In this document: positions 10,111 through 61,664 of the stretch, one piece after another
Layout: every line of letters starts with the position of its first letter
How positions within the stretch are numbered: the stretch's first letter is position 1
Source: Prosopocoilus inquinatus
Taxonomy: Eukaryota; Arthropoda; Insecta; Coleoptera; Lucanidae
Reading direction: 5' to 3'
Assembly: GCA_036172665.1 (NCBI GenBank)
Contig: CM069877.1
Span: 19,741,001-19,805,000, forward strand
DNA: 64,000 bases
Translations under genes and position numbers: made by a program
The notes under the pieces: generated by a model
Told to the model about the DNA's origin: nothing
Database searches by the model: none
What the model saw: the letters and a program-made list of their open reading frames with translations, nothing else

Positions 10111-11110
10111 TTACTCGGATTGCTGGAATGGTGGTAAGAGCAGCGTCCTGAAATCGAAATTTATCAATCATCATTCGAATATATTTTGTTTGATGAATGC
10201 GGATACGTCCATTTACCTCATCGTGGGCAATCTCCATCCCAACAAAATTTCCAGGTTTTCAAGTAATAATTTCAACTTTATTTTCGAGTTGCTGCAGAAA
10301 CTCTCGAAGAGAATCATAAGTTGATGACACGATTAGACCATCATCGACATACAATACCAATATTATAAGTGAACCCGTGTAGCATTCCTTTAACATTGAT
10401 CTACAAATCCTAGCTCGAAACCTTGAGCAATCATGAACTGAGTAGATTTGTGATTCCAACATCCTGAAGCTTGTTTTAGTCCATAAAGTGATTTCTTCCG
10501 AAAAATTATAGTATACTCATCTATTAATCACATTGGATGGATAATCTCTGCAACTTGCAAACCAAATCGTCGTTGGTGTTGGTACCTTCCGGGGTGTCAT
10601 AAATTGTTTCTTCTAGGTCGCCAAACAAAAATGCAGTTTTGACATCGGATTGAATTATTTTGTAATTATGTTTTCCTGCTGTGGCTAAGAGAATCCTCAT
10701 GGAATGGAATATCTTGTCGGCACAAAGTCTTGCTTTAAATTTTGGATTATTCGAAGAAGTGGTATCCTTAATTTTAAAAACCCACTTACATCCAATGATT
10801 TTCATTTCATTTGTTTTAGGAACAAGTTGCCAAGTGTTGTTCTTTTTTAATGCAGCAAGTTCATCGTTAAAAGCGTTTGTCCACTCTCGAGCTTCGTTCC
10901 TTTTCATTGCTTCATCATAAATTTCTGGCTCAACTATTTCGCCTAAACAGGCAGTGTATCGTGAAGGATTTTTCTATTATTTCTTGGTCGAAGATTATAA
11001 CTTTCAGTTTTCTTATCTGGATTCTTGTCATTTTCTTTGCATTTATTTTCATCATTAATCTCTTCGTTATTTGGATACTCTCTCAACTCTTGATTATTTA
11101 TTGGATAGGT
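9953..11110 (-). pseudogene. Copia-type reverse transcriptase remnant
   Basis: The minus strand carries pieces of a Ty1/copia reverse transcriptase in correct order. First, about 10,524-10,907 holds NTWQLVPK, KWVFKIK, FKARL and DVKTAFLFGDLEETIY. Next, 10,259-10,462 holds the catalytic LYVDDGLIVSS. Finally, about 10,130-10,237 holds the MEIAHDE...IRIHQTKYI segment that follows the palm. A stretch between FKARL and the ILLATAG helix is deleted, and the pieces lie in different frames with stops between them, so no enzyme can be made. RNase H is missing. It belongs to the copia element whose integrase lies at 11,602-14,140. Confidence 0.85.
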
Positions 11111-50040: not shown

Positions 50041-50750
50041 ATAAAAATGGTCAGATTTAATACCATCGCAGCTTCCTTATCATAATTACCTTTCAAGATA
50101 TAGTCAGAAATGGAAACGGATAAGTTCTCTTTCATACCCTGTACCTTTTTAAGGAGTATTTTGGAACCAATACGCTTGACCAATACGTACCGTTTTAAAG
50201 GAATATTTTGGTGCCAATATGTTTTAAGTTAAATTGCTGTGTTTTGGCGTACAGAAGAACCTTTACTAAAAATGTTAACACCTAATTATGACTCACTTTG
50301 TATTCTGCAAGTTTTTTTTGTAAGTTTACAGACTTTTCAAAAATAACTCGGCACGATTGCTAACTTTTTTATTATTAAAGTTACAGATACGGTTAAATTG
50401 GCAAACTAGTAGTATCTTTTGCCCTGATTGCAACAATGCATTCAAAAAAACAATTGAACATCCCGTTTATGAAATAAAGGGCAAATAACACTTTTTTTAA
50501 ACGGAACAGCCTGTATATTATTTGACCAGTCGATAGAGAATAAAGTTCTGAATTGAAATTGTTCTGTATCATTTTATCGAAATTTAATAAATAAAGAAGA
50601 TAATTTGATTTTTTACAAATTCATTAAGATGGCTGTGTTCCAAGAACAAAACATTTGGAAACCGTGTATGTATATGAAAACATTAATTTTGGTATATTTG
50701 TTTATTGTAAAAGGTCTTTCTGAGTGAGTTTTGGAAAAATCTTTTAATAA

Positions 50751-51094
50751 TGTTGCGTTTCTAGGGTTTATGTTTATTTATTTAAACGAATAAAACACTC
50801 GATAAAAACTTAACCGTAATTTAATAAAGCTTAAAAACTAATTTATTTGTAATAATTTATTTTCACACTAAAATCTAACTTCGACGTTCGCTGTTAGAAT
50901 TCGACTGACTCGTGAGTCAACCCGGGGCGATTTTATATCATTCGCCGCCGTCTGGAACTCTCTATGCGGGAAGATTCCAGTCTGTTCGATGTGACCCCGG
51001 TGTAGGCCCCGGTGGCGTGATGGCCGATGACGCACAACAGCGAACCGACCTCCTGACGCCCTCAGCGTGACGCAGCACTGAGCGGCTCGCCACA
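50751..51094 (-). repeat. 3' LTR of the gypsy element
   Basis: 344 bp, with TG...CA ends on the minus strand (TGTGGCG...CGCAACA). It appears identical to the LTR at 56,783-57,126. The last codons and stop (51,062) of the macro/CCCH frame lie inside it. AATAAA and TTTATT words provide processing signals on the minus strand. Confidence 0.95.
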
Positions 51095-51982
51095 CTGCCC
51101 CCTTCTTAAAAACGTTTCGTCTCGAAATGTTCCTGGTGATAGTCTTGAAGGAGGATGTCGGAATCTACAAGCTGGCCCATTCTTGCAATTTCCCGTCTGG
51201 AAGAAGTAGCAGTCTACGGTTTTGCTGTTGCTGGCTGTTGCCTGTGGGTGATGGCTGCAGACTAGGACTTCAATTCCCGTTCTGTGGAAGATGACTTCCA
51301 GCATGCTTCGTATTACTCTCCAGTCTAGTCCATCCAATCCGCAGCCCAATTTGGGGATGGCCAACTTCATCTGATGGTTCTCTATTAGCTGTCTCCTCAG
51401 GCTATATAGGGCTCTCCACATACTTTGATAGTCAGGTTTACCGCTTGATGTCTTCTTAGTGACTAAATAATGCACGTGGCGCCTCCGATCTGCCGTCGAA
51501 TCAATGATCTGCAAGCTCTTGCCTACCATGGGATGCTGTCTTCGTAGCTCCTCGATTTGGCCAAATTTCTTCCTAAACACCTGAGCGATTCCTTTGGACA
51601 TTTTCAGGTCTTCTGCTACGCAGTGGGCCAGACTGTACTCCAGTGGCACTTTAAAGAGATCTTGTTGCTTCTCCGTGGTCACTCCAAACCGTGCCTTGCT
51701 TCCTTTGGCGTGATGAGACATGAAGGTTTCGAAGTTCACTTCGGAAACTTGCACCCTTTGTACTGTCCCTTCATCTGCTTCTCCATGGTAAGGGGCTATC
51801 CGGTTGAAGTGGATTACTTTGGGTTTGCCATCGGGGACCTTCTTGATGCGGTAAACGACGTCGTTGATCCGTTTCATCACTTTGTAAGGACCTTCCCAAG
51901 AGGTCTGTAATTTTGGGGAGAGGCCTCGACGTCTTTGGGGGTTATAAAGCCAGACCAGTGCTCCAGGTTGGTATCCCCCGTG
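51062..51982 (-). CDS. Integrase C-terminus fused to TARG1/OARD1-like macro domain and CCCH zinc finger
   Basis: The frame reads the end of the integrase (ALVWLYNP, then VMKRINDVVYRI and VIHFNRIAPYH), then a macro domain and a zinc finger. Counting from the Met at 51,880, residues about 80-210 carry EYSLAHCVAEDLKMSKGIAQ, FRKKFGQIEEL, HYLVTKKTSSGKPDYQSM and IPKLGCGLDGLDW. These are the TARG1/OARD1 signatures. Lys142 and Asp183 fall where the catalytic Lys84 and Asp125 of human TARG1 lie, so ADP-ribosyl hydrolysis from acidic residues is a reasonable inference. C224-x7-C232-x5-C238-x3-H242 is a canonical CCCH finger. It is one base out of frame with gag-pol, owing to a base missing in the C run at 51,975-51,979 (plus strand). 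Confidence 0.85.
   Translation of the reverse strand, partial: HGGYQPGALVWLYNPQRRRGLSPKLQTSWEGPYKVMKRINDVVYRIKKVPDGKPKVIHFNRIAPYHGEADEGTVQRVQVSEVNFETFMSHHAKGSKARFGVTTEKQQDLFKVPLEYSLAHCVAEDLKMSKGIAQVFRKKFGQIEELRRQHPMVGKSLQIIDSTADRRRHVHYLVTKKTSSGKPDYQSMWRALYSLRRQLIENHQMKLAIPKLGCGLDGLDWRVIRSMLEVIFHRTGIEVLVCSHHPQATASNSKTVDCYFFQTGNCKNGPACRFRHPPSRLSPGTFRDETFLRRGQCGEPLSAASR
51095..51110 (-). other. Polypurine tract of the gypsy element
   Basis: The minus strand reads TTTTAAGAAGGGGGCAG directly before the 3' LTR, the expected plus-strand primer site. It also lies inside the macro/CCCH frame, so the tract is translated. Confidence 0.8.
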
Positions 51983-54900
51983 TTGAGCGTTGATGTCATG
52001 TGCTCCTTCATCCGATCGCTGGCCGTCTGTATATTGTGACGCACTTGGTTTTGGATATCATCCATTTTCCTGCGTAATTTGCTTACGTAATCTTCGTCGG
52101 CAGAGACTTCGCCAGGCTTCACACCAAACTTCAGGTCGCAGGGCAGTCTCGGCTCTCGCCCGAATACCACTTTCGCGGGAGTCTCCCCTGTTGTCTCATG
52201 AACAGATGAGCGGTATGCCATTAGAAACAGGGGGATGTACGTGTCCCAGTCCCTCTGATGATTGGAAACGACCTTGGACAAATGTCGGTTGATGGTTCTA
52301 TTGAACCTTTCCACCATTCCGTCCGACTGTGGGTGGAGTGCAGTTGTTCTAGTTTTTCGGACGCCGAGCAGAGTACACACGTTCTTGAACAAGGCCGATT
52401 CAAAGTTCCTTCCTTGGTCTGAATGCAGTTCCATAGGTGCACCATACCGACTGATCCATTCCCTGACAAGGACTTCCGCAATAGTGACTGCCTCTTGGTT
52501 AGGTAGGGCGTAAGCTTCAACCCACTTACTAAAGTAGTCCATTACCACGACGATGTACTTGTTTCCACCATTCGTTTCTGGAAACGGGCCGGCTACATCG
52601 ATGGCAACTCTCTCAAAAGGACTTCCAACGTTGTACTGTCTCATGGGAGCCTTACCCCGCCTGTGGGGACCGTTACTGGCTGCGCAGACTGCACACTTTC
52701 TGCACCAATCCTTCACGTCTTCCTTGCAGTTCACCCAGTAAAATCTTTCGCGCACCTTCTCCATAGTCTTCTTATCTCCCAGATGCCCTCCGGAAGTTCC
52801 ATCGTGAAGTTCCCTCAGAACTTCTGGCACCCTATTCTTGGGGATCAGTAACTGTGTCTTCTGTTCCATGCCTTCCTGATTCTCTATGCTTCGTCTCAGA
52901 AGACCACGATCCAACACTATGGAGTCCCACTGCGCCCAGTATGATTTTACGGACGGTGCACATGGTGCTACCTCTTCCCAGGTAGGCCTCGCGTCCCTGC
53001 TTTTCCATTCTAGCACTAATTTCAAATCCGGGTCGTTCTCCTGGTCTCTTCGCAGTTCTTCGTCTTGCCATTTGTCGTCAACTATGGCTGTCCTCGCAGT
53101 CGTGGCTACTTTCTCGTCCAAACGACTACAGTGCTTACAGTCTTCGGCACAGGGTCTTCTCGACAAAGCATCGGCATTTCGATGGCTAGTTCCTGCCCGA
53201 TGCTGAATTTCAAAATCGTACTCCTGAAGTCGTTCGATCCATCGTGCAACTTGCCCTTCTGGGTTCTTGAAACGGAGAAGCCATTTTAGAGCGGCGTGGT
53301 CGGTCCTCAGCAGGAAGCGTCTACCATACAAGTACTTGTAGAAGTGTTCTATCGTTTTTACGACGGCTAGCAATTCCCTTCTTGTGACGCAATAGTTTCG
53401 TTCCGGCTTTGATAGGACTTTACTGAAGTAGCCGATCACCTTCTCTTGCCCCTCTTGTATCTGGGAGAGTACGCCACCAATCCCAACGTTGCTAGCATCT
53501 GTGTCCACGACGAATTTTCCTTCCGGGAGAGGATAACTCAGAATAGGAGCACTAATCAAGTACTGCTTTAGTTGTTCAAAGCCAATTTGACACTGTTGGT
53601 CCCATTCAAATGTACCACCTTCTTCAGTGAGTTTTGTCAACGGCTTAGCAATGTCTGCAAATCCAGGAACGTAGCGCCGATAGTAAGTGCACAGGCCAAG
53701 GAAACTCCTTATTTGGTGTTTATTTCTGGGAGTTGGCCAGTCTTTCACCACCTGAATCTTCACAGGGTCCACGGCGATTCCATTTCCATTAACAATGTGC
53801 CCCAGGTAATTCACTTCCTTCTGGAACAGGTGACACTTCTTGAGGCTAAGCTTTAGTCCAGCTCCGCGAAGCCGCTGGAACACTCCTTCCAGGTTCCTTA
53901 GGGGGTCGTCGAACGTCTTTCCCACGACAATTATGTCGTCAAGGTACACCATGCACGTTGTCCAGGACAGACCTTTCAGAACCGTCTCCATTAACCTCTC
54001 GAATGTCGCTGGGGCATTACATAATCCGAATGGCATCACTGTGAACTGCCACAGACCCATACCAATGGAAAACGCCGTCTTTTCTCGATCTTCGGGCGCC
54101 AGCTCCACTTGCCAATATCCACTCTTTAAGTCCAAAGTTGAGAAGATCTTTGAGCCGGCCAGGGTGTCCAGGGTATCATCAATCCGTGGCAGGGGATAGC
54201 TGTCCTTCTTGGTGACATTATTGAGTAACCGGTAGTCTACACAGAACCTGGTGGACCCATCCTTCTTCTTCACAAGCACTACTGGTGACGCCCACGGGCT
54301 GCTTGATGGTTCTATTACATTATCCTTTTCCATCTCGCGAATAATGCGTTCCGCTTCCTCACGCTTCGCCAACGGTAATCGCCTTGGAGCTTGACGGATA
54401 GGTCTTTCTTCTCCAGTCTCTATTTTGTGTTTCACGACATCAGTTCTTCCCTTGGATCCATTTTCTACCTCAAATACATCTTGATAGCGGCCGATCAGTT
54501 TCTTTGCTTTTGTCTTCTGGTCTGGAGTCAATTCCTGGGCTGTTGACATAACCATTTCCCATAATTTCTTTGGGAGTTTCGCTTCTGGCACGTTTGTTTC
54601 AAGTTGCCGGGAGATGGAGGACACCATGGTGCAGCTTCCCAAGATTGTTCCTTTCTTGATATTGACAGAGAAACAATTGACGTTCATCAGGCGGACAGGT
54701 ACTTCCTTCTTCGCCGTCAACAACATTTTCCCAACGAGGACTCCTCTTCCAATCCTTTGATCATCAGTATTAGGTTCAACCATAATGACTTGCCCATCTT
54801 GGAAAACACCGTCCAGTTTTGCGTCGACGATAACCTCAGTCCTGCTGGGTAATACAACGTCTTCAGCGAGGACTACTCGAGCGGCCACGTCCCCTCGTTG

Positions 54901-56337
54901 ATGTAGAACCAACTCCTCCAAAATTGCCTCGTCCTCTATATCTGCCACCAGTGCACGGTGTTTTATTGGAGTTGAACCAATGGTGATGATAACCTCTACT
55001 TCACCGTGGACAGTTGCTGATGTTCCAGTTGCAGTTTTCAGTTTCCACTTGGTCGGCTCGGTGCGTCCAGATGACTTAATTACGTCGGGTCTTAGGATGG
55101 TCTTCGTCGCACCCGTATCCAACAACATGGAGTGAGGAATGTCATCAATGGTGACATCCACGAAGACACTGCTGGTTAACTGCCGTAGGGATATTACTTG
55201 TTTGGCTTTCGTCTTTGGGGGCCTTTGAATACGGGTCGACGTTTGCCCCTCTGCACCGACCCGGCTTAGTTTAACTGTGGCTTTCTTGGATCCTGTCTGG
55301 GCTTTGGACATCGCCTGCGAACATGTCCTTTCTCCTGGCCACAGCAGCGGTTTCTTATGCTTGAAGACCTGTTCCACAATGCGGCGAACATCCTCGGCGG
55401 TGGTATACTCCCTGAGTCGCTCCTTTATAGCAGAACCCACCTTGGCGTTAGCGGATTCTTCCTCTTCTTCCTCTTGGAAGTCCATAGCCGCTCGCACCTT
55501 GACATGCCCTCTTGAGACTCGTCTCGCCGCTTCAAATTCCAAGGCATAAGCCAATGCGTTCTTGGACGTCTTCGGATGGGTCATTCTCAATGCCTGCTGG
55601 TTGTCTGGGTCACGGATTCCATCTATGAAGGTCTGCACCGTCAAACATTTGAGGAATTCAACAGGAGCTGTGGGATATGCCAACTGGGCAAGACGCGCAA
55701 CGTCTGCTTCGAATTCCTGAAGACTTTCTCCGGATTTCTGACAGCGATTCCTCAACTGCGCATGGTATACCTCGGTCAGATGGGCCTGTCCGTAACGCAT
55801 TTCCATCCTATTCACCAGCTTGTCGAAGTCTTCTTGTTCCTCTGGCGGCATCGTCTGTAGCACATCGATAGCGTCCCCTCTCAAGGCCACAATTAACGAA
55901 GTGGCTTTTTCGCTGGCCGTCCATCTGTTCGCCTTTGCTGCTGCTTCGAACTGTTTGAAGTAGTTGGGCCAAGAAGACTTTCCATCGAACGTTGGTGGTT
56001 TTATTTTTAATTTCGAATTTTCTGCTGGTCCTTCCACAATTCTGGTTTCATTATTTTCTAGTACTTCTACTGGTGGCTGATCCCCGAACACTCGCAACCC
56101 CGCCATGATTTGTTCCAGATTTTTGATTTTGTTATCCTGCTGGAATATTATTTCTTCCACATTTTCTTGCAGGTTTCTTGTTTCTTCTGATATTTTTACC
56201 ACTAGTTTATCTTCGAGTCCTTTCGTCTGTTCTAGAAATTCACCCTTCAAATTTCCGGACTGTTCTAGAAGTTTCTCGTCGAAATTTCTGGATTGCTCTA
56301 GAAATTTCTCGTCTAAGTCTCTAGATTGTTCCAACAA
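51877..56337 (-). CDS. Gypsy gag-pol polyprotein
   Basis: The 1,486-codon frame continues the gag frame of 56,371-56,685 in register after one stop. Order by residue: coiled-coil repeats 1-75; gag capsid-like domain about 110-285; protease with LLDTGAT (Asp407); RT about 660-850 with FSTLDLKSG (Asp736) and YLDD (798-801); RNase H about 940-1060 (Asp945/947, Glu988, Asp1013, DALSR); integrase about 1175-1360 with an H2C2 zinc site and Asp1247, Asp1307, Glu1343 (35-residue D-E spacing). All catalytic residues are intact. No zinc knuckle is in frame, but a remnant lies in another frame at about 55,298-55,345. After about residue 1450 the frame is wrong because of a 1-base deletion; the true continuation is 51,062-51,982. 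Confidence 0.95.
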   Translation of the reverse strand: MLEQSRDLDEKFLEQSRNFDEKLLEQSGNLKGEFLEQTKGLEDKLVVKISEETRNLQENVEEIIFQQDNKIKNLEQIMAGLRVFGDQPPVEVLENNETRIVEGPAENSKLKIKPPTFDGKSSWPNYFKQFEAAAKANRWTASEKATSLIVALRGDAIDVLQTMPPEEQEDFDKLVNRMEMRYGQAHLTEVYHAQLRNRCQKSGESLQEFEADVARLAQLAYPTAPVEFLKCLTVQTFIDGIRDPDNQQALRMTHPKTSKNALAYALEFEAARRVSRGHVKVRAAMDFQEEEEEESANAKVGSAIKERLREYTTAEDVRRIVEQVFKHKKPLLWPGERTCSQAMSKAQTGSKKATVKLSRVGAEGQTSTRIQRPPKTKAKQVISLRQLTSSVFVDVTIDDIPHSMLLDTGATKTILRPDVIKSSGRTEPTKWKLKTATGTSATVHGEVEVIITIGSTPIKHRALVADIEDEAILEELVLHQRGDVAARVVLAEDVVLPSRTEVIVDAKLDGVFQDGQVIMVEPNTDDQRIGRGVLVGKMLLTAKKEVPVRLMNVNCFSVNIKKGTILGSCTMVSSISRQLETNVPEAKLPKKLWEMVMSTAQELTPDQKTKAKKLIGRYQDVFEVENGSKGRTDVVKHKIETGEERPIRQAPRRLPLAKREEAERIIREMEKDNVIEPSSSPWASPVVLVKKKDGSTRFCVDYRLLNNVTKKDSYPLPRIDDTLDTLAGSKIFSTLDLKSGYWQVELAPEDREKTAFSIGMGLWQFTVMPFGLCNAPATFERLMETVLKGLSWTTCMVYLDDIIVVGKTFDDPLRNLEGVFQRLRGAGLKLSLKKCHLFQKEVNYLGHIVNGNGIAVDPVKIQVVKDWPTPRNKHQIRSFLGLCTYYRRYVPGFADIAKPLTKLTEEGGTFEWDQQCQIGFEQLKQYLISAPILSYPLPEGKFVVDTDASNVGIGGVLSQIQEGQEKVIGYFSKVLSKPERNYCVTRRELLAVVKTIEHFYKYLYGRRFLLRTDHAALKWLLRFKNPEGQVARWIERLQEYDFEIQHRAGTSHRNADALSRRPCAEDCKHCSRLDEKVATTARTAIVDDKWQDEELRRDQENDPDLKLVLEWKSRDARPTWEEVAPCAPSVKSYWAQWDSIVLDRGLLRRSIENQEGMEQKTQLLIPKNRVPEVLRELHDGTSGGHLGDKKTMEKVRERFYWVNCKEDVKDWCRKCAVCAASNGPHRRGKAPMRQYNVGSPFERVAIDVAGPFPETNGGNKYIVVVMDYFSKWVEAYALPNQEAVTIAEVLVREWISRYGAPMELHSDQGRNFESALFKNVCTLLGVRKTRTTALHPQSDGMVERFNRTINRHLSKVVSNHQRDWDTYIPLFLMAYRSSVHETTGETPAKVVFGREPRLPCDLKFGVKPGEVSADEDYVSKLRRKMDDIQNQVRHNIQTASDRMKEHMTSTLNTGDTNLEHWSGFITPKDVEASPQNYRPLGKVLTK

Positions 56338-56370
56338 TTTATTTTGTAATTTGTCGAAATTTCCAGATTG

Positions 56371-56685
56371 TTATAGAAGCTTCTCCTCTAAATTTCTGGA
56401 TTGTTCTCGAAGCTTCTGTAAATTTCCAGACTGTTCTTGAAACTTCTCGTCCAAATTTCTGGATTGTTCTCGAAATTCATCCTTCAAGATTTTATTAAAA
56501 TCGGCGGGACCACACGAAATTTCGAAAAGGAACGTCTCTGGATCTTCACCAGCTGTCAACAAATCGGATCGGAGACGCTGTTGAAGTGCGCCTTTCAAAC
56601 CACCGGTTTCTAACTCTCGTTCTTCCAATTCGGTTTTTAATTCGGCCACTTTTAAGTCTTTCAACAACACTTTTCTCGTAGCCAT
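56371..56685 (-). CDS. Gag N-terminus: SAP motif and coiled coil, ended by a nonsense codon
   Basis: The frame begins MATRKVLLKDLKVAELKTEL; residues about 10-40 fit a SAP (helix-turn-helix DNA-binding) motif, known at the start of some insect gypsy gags. From residue about 70 a repeat of about 11-12 residues (EQSRNLDEKF / EQSGNLQKL) starts, and it continues after the stop into 56,337. The TAA at 56,371-56,373 interrupts one of these repeats where its siblings have GAA (Glu), so a single G-to-T change is the simplest cause. The downstream frame is in register. Confidence 0.9.
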   Translation of the reverse strand: MATRKVLLKDLKVAELKTELEERELETGGLKGALQQRLRSDLLTAGEDPETFLFEISCGPADFNKILKDEFREQSRNLDEKFQEQSGNLQKLREQSRNLEEKLL

Positions 56686-56761
56686 TGTTTTTTTTCCTAT
56701 ACTGTACTTATTTAATAATCTGATTAAATTTAATTTACTTTAAATTGTTTATTTATTTGCA

Positions 56762-56782
56762 CAAACCCCACACCGACACCAC
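56762..56782 (-). other. Gypsy primer-binding site region
   Basis: The minus strand just inside the 5' LTR reads GTGGTGTCGGTGTGGGG. A tRNA 3' end ...CCGACACCA would pair from the TGG. The acceptor end resembles that of tRNA-Leu, but the match cannot be verified here. Confidence 0.5.
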
Positions 56783-57126
56783 TGTTGCGTTTCTAGGGTT
56801 TATGTTTATTTATTTAAACGAATAAAACACTCGATAAAAACTTAACCGTAATTTAATAAAGCTTAAAAACTAATTTATTTGTAATAATTTATTTTCACAC
56901 TAAAATCTAACTTCGACGTTCGCTGTTAGAATTCGACTGACTCGTGAGTCAACCCGGGGCGATTTTATATCATTCGCCGCCGTCTGGAACTCTCTATGCG
57001 GGAAGATTCCAGTCTGTTCGATGTGACCCCGGTGTAGGCCCCGGTGGCGTGATGGCCGATGACGCACAACAGCGAACCGACCTCCTGACGCCCTCAGCGT
57101 GACGCAGCACTGAGCGGCTCGCCACA
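56783..57126 (-). repeat. 5' LTR of the gypsy element
   Basis: 344 bp, apparently identical to 50,751-51,094 along its length. It is followed by the target duplication ATAA. The 75-codon frame at 56,900-57,127, mirrored in the other LTR, is a by-product. Confidence 0.95.
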
Positions 57127-57371
57127 ATAAAAAGATTTTTTATAAGACGCATGTTTTGACTCAAAGTAAACACCTTTTATAATAAACAAATAAACCAAAA
57201 TTAATGTTTTCACATACATACACTGTTTTCAAATGTTTTATTCTTGAAACACAGCCATTTTAATAAATTTGTAAAAATCAAAATATCTTCTTTATTTATT
57301 AATTTTCGATAAAATGATAAAGAGCAATTTTAATTCAGAATAATCTATCGATTATTTAAATAATATACAAT

Positions 57372-60601: not shown

Positions 60602-61664
60602 ATGTTAGAATTACAGCAGAAAATATTTATTGTTGAAAGTTATTTTCAAACCGGTAGAATAGAAAATGGACAGTTAGTTTATTCAATTAATCAGTGTGTA
60701 CAGAAGCTTCGACAGCTGTTTCCTAATTTTGCTATTACTTATGAACTTCTAGTTAAACATATCCACGCTTATGTTCTTAAATTTCGTGGAACAGGATCAC
60801 TTGGTCGCAAAACAGGGAGCGGAGCAGCTAAGAAAAAGAACTGCAGCCTGCATTGATGATGTTCGGGATCGAATGGAACACTCTCCCAAGAAATCTATTG
60901 CGAAACTTTCACAAGAAGTTCAGCTATCAGTGGGAACATGTCACACTATTCTTAAAAAAGACTTAAAGCTTTATCTATATAAGATTCAAGCAGTCCACGA
61001 ACTCAGGCCAGTAGATTTTCATAGAAGAACAGAATATTGTCAGTGGTTTCTTGATAACTTAAACAACGAGGACATTCTTGACAAGTGTTTCTTTTCCGAA
61101 GAGGCCTGGTTTCATCTCTCAGGGTGTTCAAATAAACAGAATATGAGAATATGGTCAGCAGAAAATCCCTATGAATTTGTGGAAACTCCATTACATCCAT
61201 TAAAAATTGGTGTTTGGCTAGCAGTGTCAAGAAGGCGTACCATCGGATCAATATTTTTTAACGACTCAGTAACTGCTGAAAGATACCGAAATGAGTTATT
61301 AGAACCTTTCATTAATCAACTACATGATGATGAACTTACAGAAGGGTTTTTTTTCTGCAAGACAATGCTACTACCCACACAGCTCATCAAACAACGACTT
61401 TCCTGCAGCAGTTTTTCGATAATTGAATTGTGAATTTTCCTGCAAGGTCTCCGGATCTCACAATTATGGATTACTTCATTTATCCGCACATGAAAAACAC
61501 AGTTTTTAGAACTACGCGTCACAATCGAAGAACTTCGTGCTGGCATTACAGATGTGTGTGCTAACATAACCCCCGAACACTTAGCAAACGGGTTTGAAAA
61601 CATGAAAAGCAGAGTACGCTTATGTATTCAAGCTGAAGGAGAGCACTTTGAGCATCTACTTTAA
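60602..61664 (+). pseudogene. Mariner-related DDE transposase, broken
   Basis: The N-terminal frame (60,602-60,856) starts MLELQQKIFIVESYFQTGRI and holds an HTH region. The second frame (60,771-61,433) has SPKKSIAKLSQEVQLSVGTC, CFFSEEAWFHLSG, MRIWSAENPYEF and KIGVWLAVSRRRTIGSIFF. A third frame gives LQDNATTHTA and SPDLTIMDYF, and the tail ends CIQAEGEHFEHLL. These are marks of the FSDEAWFHLSG / GHFEHLL group of Tc1/mariner-superfamily transposases. The first catalytic Asp is Glu here (SEEAWF). Frameshifts near 60,830, 61,345 and 61,500 and a stop at about 61,424 make it inactive. Possible inverted ends AAGTGGGCTATGATTT (60,485) and AAATCACAGCTTACTT (61,768) match at about 12 of 16. Confidence 0.85.

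What the first reader, a model, noticed from the sequence alone, without database searches (positions are those of the whole stretch)
51062..51982. Gypsy retrotransposon carrying a TARG1-like ADP-ribose hydrolase and a CCCH finger
Seen: after the integrase, in the frame that follows it, lie a macro domain with LVTKKTSSGKP and LGCGLDGLDW and then C-x7-C-x5-C-x3-H. Established: TARG1/OARD1 hydrolyses ADP-ribose from acidic residues using a Lys and an Asp at these motifs, and macro domains in some RNA viruses counter host ADP-ribosylation defences. Inference: the element captured a host TARG1-type gene and may use it against PARP-mediated silencing or to alter ADP-ribosylated host or Gag proteins, with the CCCH finger binding RNA. 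A captured counter-defence module in a non-viral LTR element would be unusual.
Basis: partly seen in the sequence, partly recalled or inferred. Interest (0 to 1): 0.88.

Follow-up and report, generated by a model that had tools for sequence, protein, structure and literature searches.

The report
Beetle retrotransposons with captured ADP-ribose eraser
A family of jumping genes with over a hundred copies in one likely beetle genome ends its replication protein with a domain of the human TARG1 kind and a zinc finger, and other jumping-gene families in the same genome carry a domain of that kind at a different place; the domain is predicted to erase ADP-ribose marks, which would point to an unrecognised contest between retrotransposons and host ADP-ribosylation.

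Summary
Window 50751-57126 (minus strand) is a Ty3/Gypsy element with identical 344-bp LTRs and a 4-bp target duplication. After the integrase lies a TARG1/OARD1-type macro domain (51260-51691; human TARG1 E 3e-29; predicted structure best matches TARG1, TM 0.93 on the target), then a CCCH finger (51155-51211). It is not a private insertion: 121 module copies scored in this genome, 104 without a stop inside; 20 of 20 copies picked by integrase DNA have a macro match; it recurs in beetles of four families. Catalytic Lys and Asp are kept in 144 of 144 database rows of the family. This copy has a stop early in gag and a frame change before the module; 12 of the 121 show one unbroken frame of over 1900 aa.

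Beyond the finding: four further LTR-element families here (B-E) carry a TARG1-type macro domain after the protease, without a CCCH finger. The tree puts A and B/D beside a multi-domain beetle host gene and C/E beside a dsRBD-macro protein, suggesting repeated capture; an AU test does not exclude one capture.

Best reading: a captured ADP-ribose hydrolase, likely acting on the element's own proteins or nucleic acids. Activity is untested. New variant of a known kind.

The parts
56783..57126 (-). 5' LTR of the element (344 bp, TG..CA)
   Evidence: identical to the other LTR; sequence
50751..51094 (-). 3' LTR (344 bp)
50747..50750 (.). target-site duplication ATAA, left
57127..57130 (.). target-site duplication ATAA, right
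56766..56781 (-). primer-binding-site-like stretch (TGGTGTCGG...), one base after the 5' LTR
   Evidence: position in sequence; the tRNA was not identified
51095..51107 (-). polypurine tract, read within the ORF as part of LRRGQ
56377..56685 (-). N-terminal gag piece with SAP domain, ends at a stop in this copy
   Evidence: PF02037 32.5 bits, cut-off 23.9
51877..56370 (-). gag-pol open frame, 1497 codons: protease, RT, RNase H, integrase
53791..54273 (-). reverse transcriptase domain (PF00078)
   Evidence: residues 700-860 of the 1497-aa frame
52339..52620 (-). integrase core (PF00665)
   Evidence: residues 1251-1344
51062..52057 (-). module ORF: integrase C-terminus, macro domain, CCCH finger; stop lies inside the LTR
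51791..51892 (-). integrase p58 C-terminal domain (PF22938)
   Evidence: residues 56-89
51260..51691 (-). TARG1/OARD1-type macro domain
51455..51457 (-). Lys codon of LVTK, aligned with the TK of human TARG1 (catalytic Lys84 by recalled numbering)
   Evidence: K in 144 of 144 rows
51332..51334 (-). Asp codon of GCGLD, aligned with the D of human TARG1 (catalytic Asp125 by recalled numbering)
   Evidence: D in 144 of 144 rows
51155..51211 (-). CCCH zinc finger (C-x7-C-x5-C-x3-H)

Best explanation
This is a Ty3/Gypsy LTR retrotransposon whose pol frame ends in a TARG1-type macro domain and a CCCH zinc finger; the macro domain, likely captured from a host gene, is predicted to be an active ADP-ribose hydrolase that would erase host-added ADP-ribose from the element's own proteins or nucleic acids around reverse transcription and integration. 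Shown: anatomy, copy number, conservation of the catalytic Lys and Asp in database relatives, fewer amino-acid than silent changes, recurrence in beetles, and a second position (after the protease) in other families. Inferred: the polyprotein is cut so that macro domain plus finger is released or stays on the integrase; the finger holds it on element RNA or cDNA; the benefit is resistance to a host ADP-ribosylation response. Because the domain sits at two different places in pol, its use probably does not depend on being joined to the integrase, as with the dUTPases of retroviruses (recalled).
For: Sequence match to TARG1 E 3e-29 and fold match to TARG1 with ADP-ribose, E 7.4e-16, TM 0.93 on the target (macro blocks of the model pLDDT 89-97). 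Lys and Asp kept in 144 of 144 family-A rows; CCCH by regex in 133 of 142 rows with a complete macro domain (most rows are copies from Aromia moschata). Copies in this genome: 121 scored of 2805 candidates; 20 of 20 integrase-chosen copies have a macro match, 17 of them full-length, ungapped and without a stop. pN/pS of the macro domain 0.169 among 42 of 44 copies picked by module score, RT 0.129 in 13 of 44; 0.365 among 17 copies picked by integrase DNA plus the window. Between families A-E dN is 0.38-0.66 while dS is 2.7 or more or saturated. Macro domain after the protease in B-E. Substrate and host pressure, from papers seen as passages: TARG1 removes ADP-ribose also from the ends of dsDNA and ssRNA (PMC11088682); SIRT6 silences LINE1 retrotransposons by mono-ADP-ribosylating KAP1 in mammals (PMC4695847; PMC8509805); in parp-1 mutant flies 5 of 8 misregulated mobile elements are up, and of 10 further elements that rise without passing the authors' cut-offs 9 are of the gypsy superfamily (PMC7712786).
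Against: No activity, expression or cleavage data. Pfam Macro is below its cut-off for the window protein. No CCCH hit in the B-E pieces scanned, and some A members lack it (P0003, P0009, P0225), so the finger is dispensable. The linker between integrase and macro domain shows little constraint (pN/pS 0.84) and the tail only moderate (0.475). The 0.365 of the sample not picked by module is no lower than the integrase core's 0.364 in the other sample. Among its 18 rows, one lacks the YLVTKK string, one PKLGC and one HCVA.D, and one reads GCGS for GCGL. The fly paper says the effect may be indirect. The SIRT6 case concerns a host repressor, not an element's own parts, and a LINE, not an LTR element. 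I saw no paper reporting ADP-ribosylation of an LTR retrotransposon component, but no search was aimed at exactly that.
Confidence: 0.55

Rival explanations
1. Targeting domain: the macro domain reads ADP-ribosylated chromatin or DNA-break sites and steers the joined integrase there, as the chromodomain does in chromoviruses; catalysis is secondary.
For: Position directly after the integrase C-terminal domain; chromoviruses carry a chromodomain that targets integration (PMC9289625 introduction; its C-terminal place is in an abstract listed); some macro domains are readers (PMC11088682, passage); gag begins with a SAP domain, another possible chromatin binder.
Against: Catalytic Lys and Asp are kept in 144 of 144 rows, although a reader should not need them; families B-E carry the domain after the protease, far from the integrase.
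Confidence: 0.2
2. Anti-silencing at chromatin: the released enzyme removes ADP-ribose from host silencing factors, so that element transcription is relieved, without touching the element's own parts.
For: SIRT6 represses LINE1 by mono-ADP-ribosylating KAP1 (PMC4695847, passage); mobile elements tend to rise in parp-1 mutant flies (PMC7712786, passages).
Against: The domain is made as part of Gag-Pol and so is expected mainly in particles (inference); the CCCH finger suggests RNA as its place; the mammalian pathway may not exist in beetles.
Confidence: 0.15
3. General sanitiser: it removes ADP-ribose or O-acetyl-ADP-ribose, or ADP-ribose from DNA/RNA ends made during cDNA synthesis, without any host defence being involved.
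For: TARG1 has several ADP-ribose-linked substrates, including dsDNA and ssRNA ends and O-acetyl-ADP-ribose (PMC11088682, passages); two positions in pol resemble retroviral dUTPase placement (recalled).
Against: Fold matches in several insect RNA viruses fit a host pressure better (inference); not testable here.
Confidence: 0.06
4. Passenger: a hitch-hiking host sequence copied along without use.
For: LTR elements do pick up extra domains (PMC9289625, section read); constraint on the linker and tail is weak.
Against: Fewer amino-acid than silent changes in the macro domain, invariant catalytic residues, presence across beetle families and presence in differently built elements.
Confidence: 0.04

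Closest known systems
TARG1/OARD1/C6orf130 (terminal ADP-ribose protein glycohydrolase)
   Same: 36-37% identity over 142-144 columns in the best fold matches, same fold, aligned catalytic Lys and Asp
   Different: encoded inside a retrotransposon polyprotein and followed by a CCCH finger; continuous where the host-type gene of this genome is interrupted; activity untested
[quoted passage not shown] 2009, as cited in PMC4977317)
   Same: retroelement with an added macro domain
   Different: seen only as one sentence: additional ORFs in vertebrate retroviruses; macro subtype, position and conservation could not be compared
Orchid Ty3/Gypsy elements with an AlkB RNA demethylase (PMC9289625)
   Same: Gypsy element with a captured eraser enzyme kept as a lineage trait; demethylase activity shown in vitro there (abstract)
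   Different: different chemistry, additional ORF, plant host
Chromoviruses
   Different: macro domain instead of chromodomain; no chromodomain hit in the Pfam scan
Insect RNA-virus macro domains, e.g. Kadipiro virus VP8
   Same: best fold match among viral models, 27% identity; protein P0148, also 456 aa, has a dsRNA-binding domain plus macro domain
   Different: RNA viruses; P0148 comes from unnamed contigs, and that it is a VP8 relative is only suggested by equal length

Membership tests
Ty3/Gypsy LTR retrotransposon | LTRs and short target duplication | tested here: met
   344-bp identical LTRs, ATAA duplication
Ty3/Gypsy LTR retrotransposon | domain order PR-RT-RH-IN | tested here: met
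   RT of a family-A copy is 71-78% identical to the RT of five database relatives
TARG1/OARD1-type macro domain | closest to TARG1 among solved macro domains by sequence and by fold | tested here: met
   TARG1 chains rank first, DarG macro domains next and far behind
TARG1/OARD1-type macro domain | catalytic Lys and Asp | tested here: met
   aligned, kept in 144 of 144 rows; residue roles recalled
Pfam Macro (PF01661) | score above the curated cut-off | tested here: not met
   window protein 18.5 bits against 22; host-type P0194 22.6, family C 25.8 and 28.5, E 31.1 pass; B 16.7 does not
TARG1/OARD1-type macro domain | hydrolysis of ADP-ribose ester bonds | not testable with these tools
   needs an enzyme assay
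CCCH zinc finger | profile match above cut-off, C-x7-8-C-x5-C-x3-H spacing | tested here: met
   PF00642 26.7 bits against 20.5
CCCH zinc finger | RNA binding | not testable with these tools
   needs a binding assay
Chromovirus | chromodomain after integrase | tested here: not met
   no chromodomain in the Pfam scan
Errantivirus (env-bearing Gypsy) | env ORF between pol and 3' LTR | tested here: not met
   that space is filled by the module; on the element's strand the only other frame of 60 aa or more there runs from 51164 into the LTR

The most novel reading that the evidence does not exclude
LTR retrotransposons of beetles have captured TARG1-type ADP-ribose hydrolases several times, at two places in pol, because insects use ADP-ribosylation as an anti-retroelement defence; the domain is a counter-defence enzyme, and some copies may trace to, or have passed to, double-stranded RNA viruses.
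Probability: 0.3. Interest if true: 0.92.

Novelty: new variant of a known kind. Interest (0 to 1): 0.74.

Why it matters
If the enzyme is active, it would make a specific, testable claim that ADP-ribosylation acts on LTR retrotransposons in insects, and it would set a selfish element beside RNA viruses that carry macro domains against host PARPs (recalled). A domain of this kind in differently built elements of one genome is a natural experiment: elements with and without it can be compared in the same cells. Not every listed paper was opened, two listings were cut (20 of 132, 12 of 15), and most subscription journals are not in that library.

Tried and rejected
Private insertion in one copy: rejected. 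Chance macro motif: rejected. Chromodomain or env in that place: not found. A single capture of the domain by all element families: not rejected (AU p 0.174); all protease-RT families as one clade: not rejected (p 0.136); family A plus host without B/D: not rejected (p 0.303). So the number of captures stays open although starred branches favour at least two. The first selection estimate (0.169) came from copies picked by module score, which biases it down; the sample picked by integrase DNA gave 0.365, so I give both. My regex for the Asp motif failed on all 120 rows and its CCCH pattern also caught two integrase histidine-cysteine motifs; one search replaces it. A copy count for family C was asked for and never answered, nor was a search of this genome with P0014, so whether it also holds a single-domain OARD1 gene is unknown. 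The viral-contig scan gave 62 loci whose best segments are 29-45% identical; I did not study them. The entry named Erysiphe pulchra (P0131), a mildew fungus by name, may be insect contamination; not followed. Trees: rows were chosen by me; three named rows (P0007, P0008, P0011) lacked a complete domain and were left out, and the bootstrap had not settled, 15 rows of the set were dropped to make room, P0158 is a long branch, the two family-B rows have an unusual letter make-up, the host rows are single exons, and the root is at the midpoint.

Full report
What is there. The minus strand of window 50751-57126 carries an LTR retrotransposon: two identical 344-bp LTRs, TG..CA ends, ATAA duplicated on both sides, a primer-site-like stretch one base after the 5' LTR and a polypurine tract before the 3' LTR. 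Pfam finds protease, RT, RNase H and integrase in the 1497-codon frame 56370-51877, and a SAP domain at the N-terminus of gag. The next frame, 52057-51062, begins inside the integrase C-terminal region and holds integrase p58 C-terminus, macro domain and CCCH finger, and ends inside the LTR. The two frames are a defect of this copy, as is a stop early in gag: of the 121 copies listed (out of 2805 candidates), 12 show an unbroken frame of more than 1900 aa and 104 have no stop within the module (my counts from the table).

The macro domain. Human TARG1 chains match at E 3e-29 to 5.3e-29, far ahead of the next macro domain, DarG at 3.9e-5. An AlphaFold2 model from 27 sequences (macro blocks pLDDT 89-97; finger and tail poorly modelled, blocks 36-67) matches TARG1 with ADP-ribose first, E 7.4e-16, TM 0.93 on the target. 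The Lys of LVTK and the Asp of GCGLD align with the residues that I recall as TARG1 Lys84 and Asp125. In a profile alignment of 144 family-A rows (the window and 143 database proteins, chosen by me), Lys is kept in 144 and Asp in 144, the His and Asp of HCVAED in 142 of the 142 rows that reach them; CCCH was found by regex in 133 of 142 rows with a complete macro domain, and not in nine, of which at least P0004 simply ends there and P0151 has one changed Cys (sequences). Most rows are copies from Aromia moschata, so this counts copies, not events.

Distribution of family A. Searching with the macro piece gave 15 proteins; searching with the module of another copy gave 154, of which 120 were listed; a profile search gave 563, of which 120 were listed, most of them host-type OARD1 proteins or unnamed. 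Named hosts of module-bearing proteins are beetles: Aromia moschata, Molorchus minor, Exocentrus adspersus, Pyrocoelia pectoralis, Gonioctena quinquepunctata, Brassicogethes aeneus. I looked up four of the six: Cerambycidae (Molorchus), Lampyridae, Chrysomelidae and Nitidulidae. For Gonioctena and Brassicogethes the protein model shows macro domain, finger and the translated PPT edge but no pol part; for Pyrocoelia the integrase end and macro domain but no finger. One entry is named for a mildew fungus and may be contamination. P0093, P0094, P0125 and P0132 are fused proteins with protease, RT, RNase H and integrase, P0135 the same without a protease hit (precomputed Pfam), and their RT is 71-78% identical to that of family A.

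Within this genome. Twenty copies were picked by integrase DNA alone (20 of the 39 other rows, which scored 40 of 1023 candidates); all 20 have a macro match at the expected place, 17 over the full length without gaps and without a stop; two of the other three are partial and one has two gaps. pN/pS for these 17 plus the window is 0.365; for 42 of 44 copies picked by module score it is 0.169, with RT 0.129 (13 of 44), integrase core 0.364 (36 of 44), tail with finger 0.475 (37 of 44), linker 0.84 (44 of 44). Individual copies do lose motif residues (four single cases among the 18 rows).

A second place. A search of the own genome with a beetle non-element protein (P0194, 343 aa) listed 118 matches of 1317 candidates. 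I read 22 of its loci (L115-L136). One is the host-type gene and some are family A; the others show four further families in which a macro domain follows an aspartic protease. B (14 places: L116-L126, L133-L135): protease, macro, RT and the start of RNase H in one frame (L121; TARG1 E 5e-32 and Ty3 RT E 2e-72 among solved structures; Pfam Macro itself below cut-off). D (2 places: L128 and the second match in L129): RT 86% identical to B and 50% to A; protease only by a sub-threshold Pfam hit, macro by the profile (Pfam Macro not reached). C (2 places: L127, L130): protease and macro above cut-off; RT not seen in the copies read. E (1 place, L132): macro above cut-off; protease, RNase H and integrase recognised by eye, RT apparently lost in that copy. 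No CCCH hit in the six B-E pieces scanned. dN between families is 0.38-0.66 with dS 2.7 or more or saturated, so the protein has been held under constraint for a long time.

Origin. In the first tree (65 rows) 21 element rows of family A form one clade, 100/96, with P0194 next to it at weak support 71/68. In the second tree (59 rows) A, B, D and the host-type gene (P0194 and two exon rows of the gene at G000 C5:3752700) form a group 99/92; A with B/D 98/88; C and E sit elsewhere with P0148, a dsRBD-macro protein, 98/82. AU tests do not reject one capture (p 0.174). The host-type gene has at least two macro domains and an interruption after GIAVNFR, where the elements are continuous, which fits capture from spliced RNA (inference). 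That the genome is a beetle's is inferred from the 61% match of this gene to Aromia moschata and from the family's hosts.

How it likely works (inferred). Conserved catalytic residues argue for an eraser and not only a reader. Two places in pol argue against a role that needs fusion to the integrase. A finger resembling those of CPSF30 (E 4.4e-7) beside the eraser, and a dsRNA-binding domain beside the macro domain in P0148, suggest an eraser held on nucleic acid; TARG1 itself removes ADP-ribose from dsDNA and ssRNA ends as well as from protein (PMC11088682, passages). Host ADP-ribosylation does bear on retrotransposons: SIRT6 silences LINE1 by mono-ADP-ribosylating KAP1 (PMC4695847, PMC8509805, passages), and in parp-1 mutant flies 5 of 8 misregulated mobile elements go up, with an indirect cause allowed by the authors (PMC7712786, passages). 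None of this is shown for the present element.

Known or new. Captured enzymes in Gypsy elements are known (orchid AlkB, PMC9289625: abstract, introduction and one results section read). Macro domain ORFs in fish endogenous retroviruses are mentioned in one sentence of PMC4977317; the cited Basta et al. 2009 was not read. The listings of ten searches showed no macro domain in a Gypsy retrotransposon. I therefore rate it a new variant of a known kind.

Noticed in passing
window 50546-50719 and 57168-57340: The element sits between the arms of an imperfect inverted repeat (117 nt 89% and 68 nt 93% complementary), as if it had inserted into the loop of a palindromic repeat.
   Followed up: no
window 56216-56488: Six overlapping matches of a 69-nt repeat at spacings of 33-63 nt in the gag N-terminus, coding a repeated LLEQSRNLDEKF-like unit that looks like a coiled coil.
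   Followed up: no
window 56377-56685: SAP domain at the start of gag, also precomputed in many Aromia relatives; it seems unusual for a Gypsy gag (recalled).
   Followed up: partly
gag of family A (window 54801-55900 and L112-L114): A regex found no CCHC zinc knuckle in the gag frame of these four copies, although a Molorchus relative (P0115) has one; the C-terminal CCCH finger might stand in for it.
   Followed up: partly
L050-L111: 62 IMG/VR viral contigs encode TARG1-like macro domains, best segments 29-45% identical to the window's.
   Followed up: no
P0148; fold match A0A8E0KJF2: A 456-aa dsRBD-macro protein groups with element families C/E; the best viral fold match is Kadipiro virus VP8, also 456 aa.
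   Followed up: partly
L129: A family-D macro ORF and a family-A module lie within 3.1 kb of each other on the same strand, suggesting nested insertions.
   Followed up: no
window 10524-10973 (-) and 60753-61433 (+): ORFs that look like a Copia-type RT piece and a mariner/Tc1-type transposase piece (recognised by eye, no search).
   Followed up: no
G000 C5:3750000-3757000 (L137): Host-type gene with at least two TARG1-type macro domains and a long charged linker; a multi-domain beetle relative of OARD1.
   Followed up: partly
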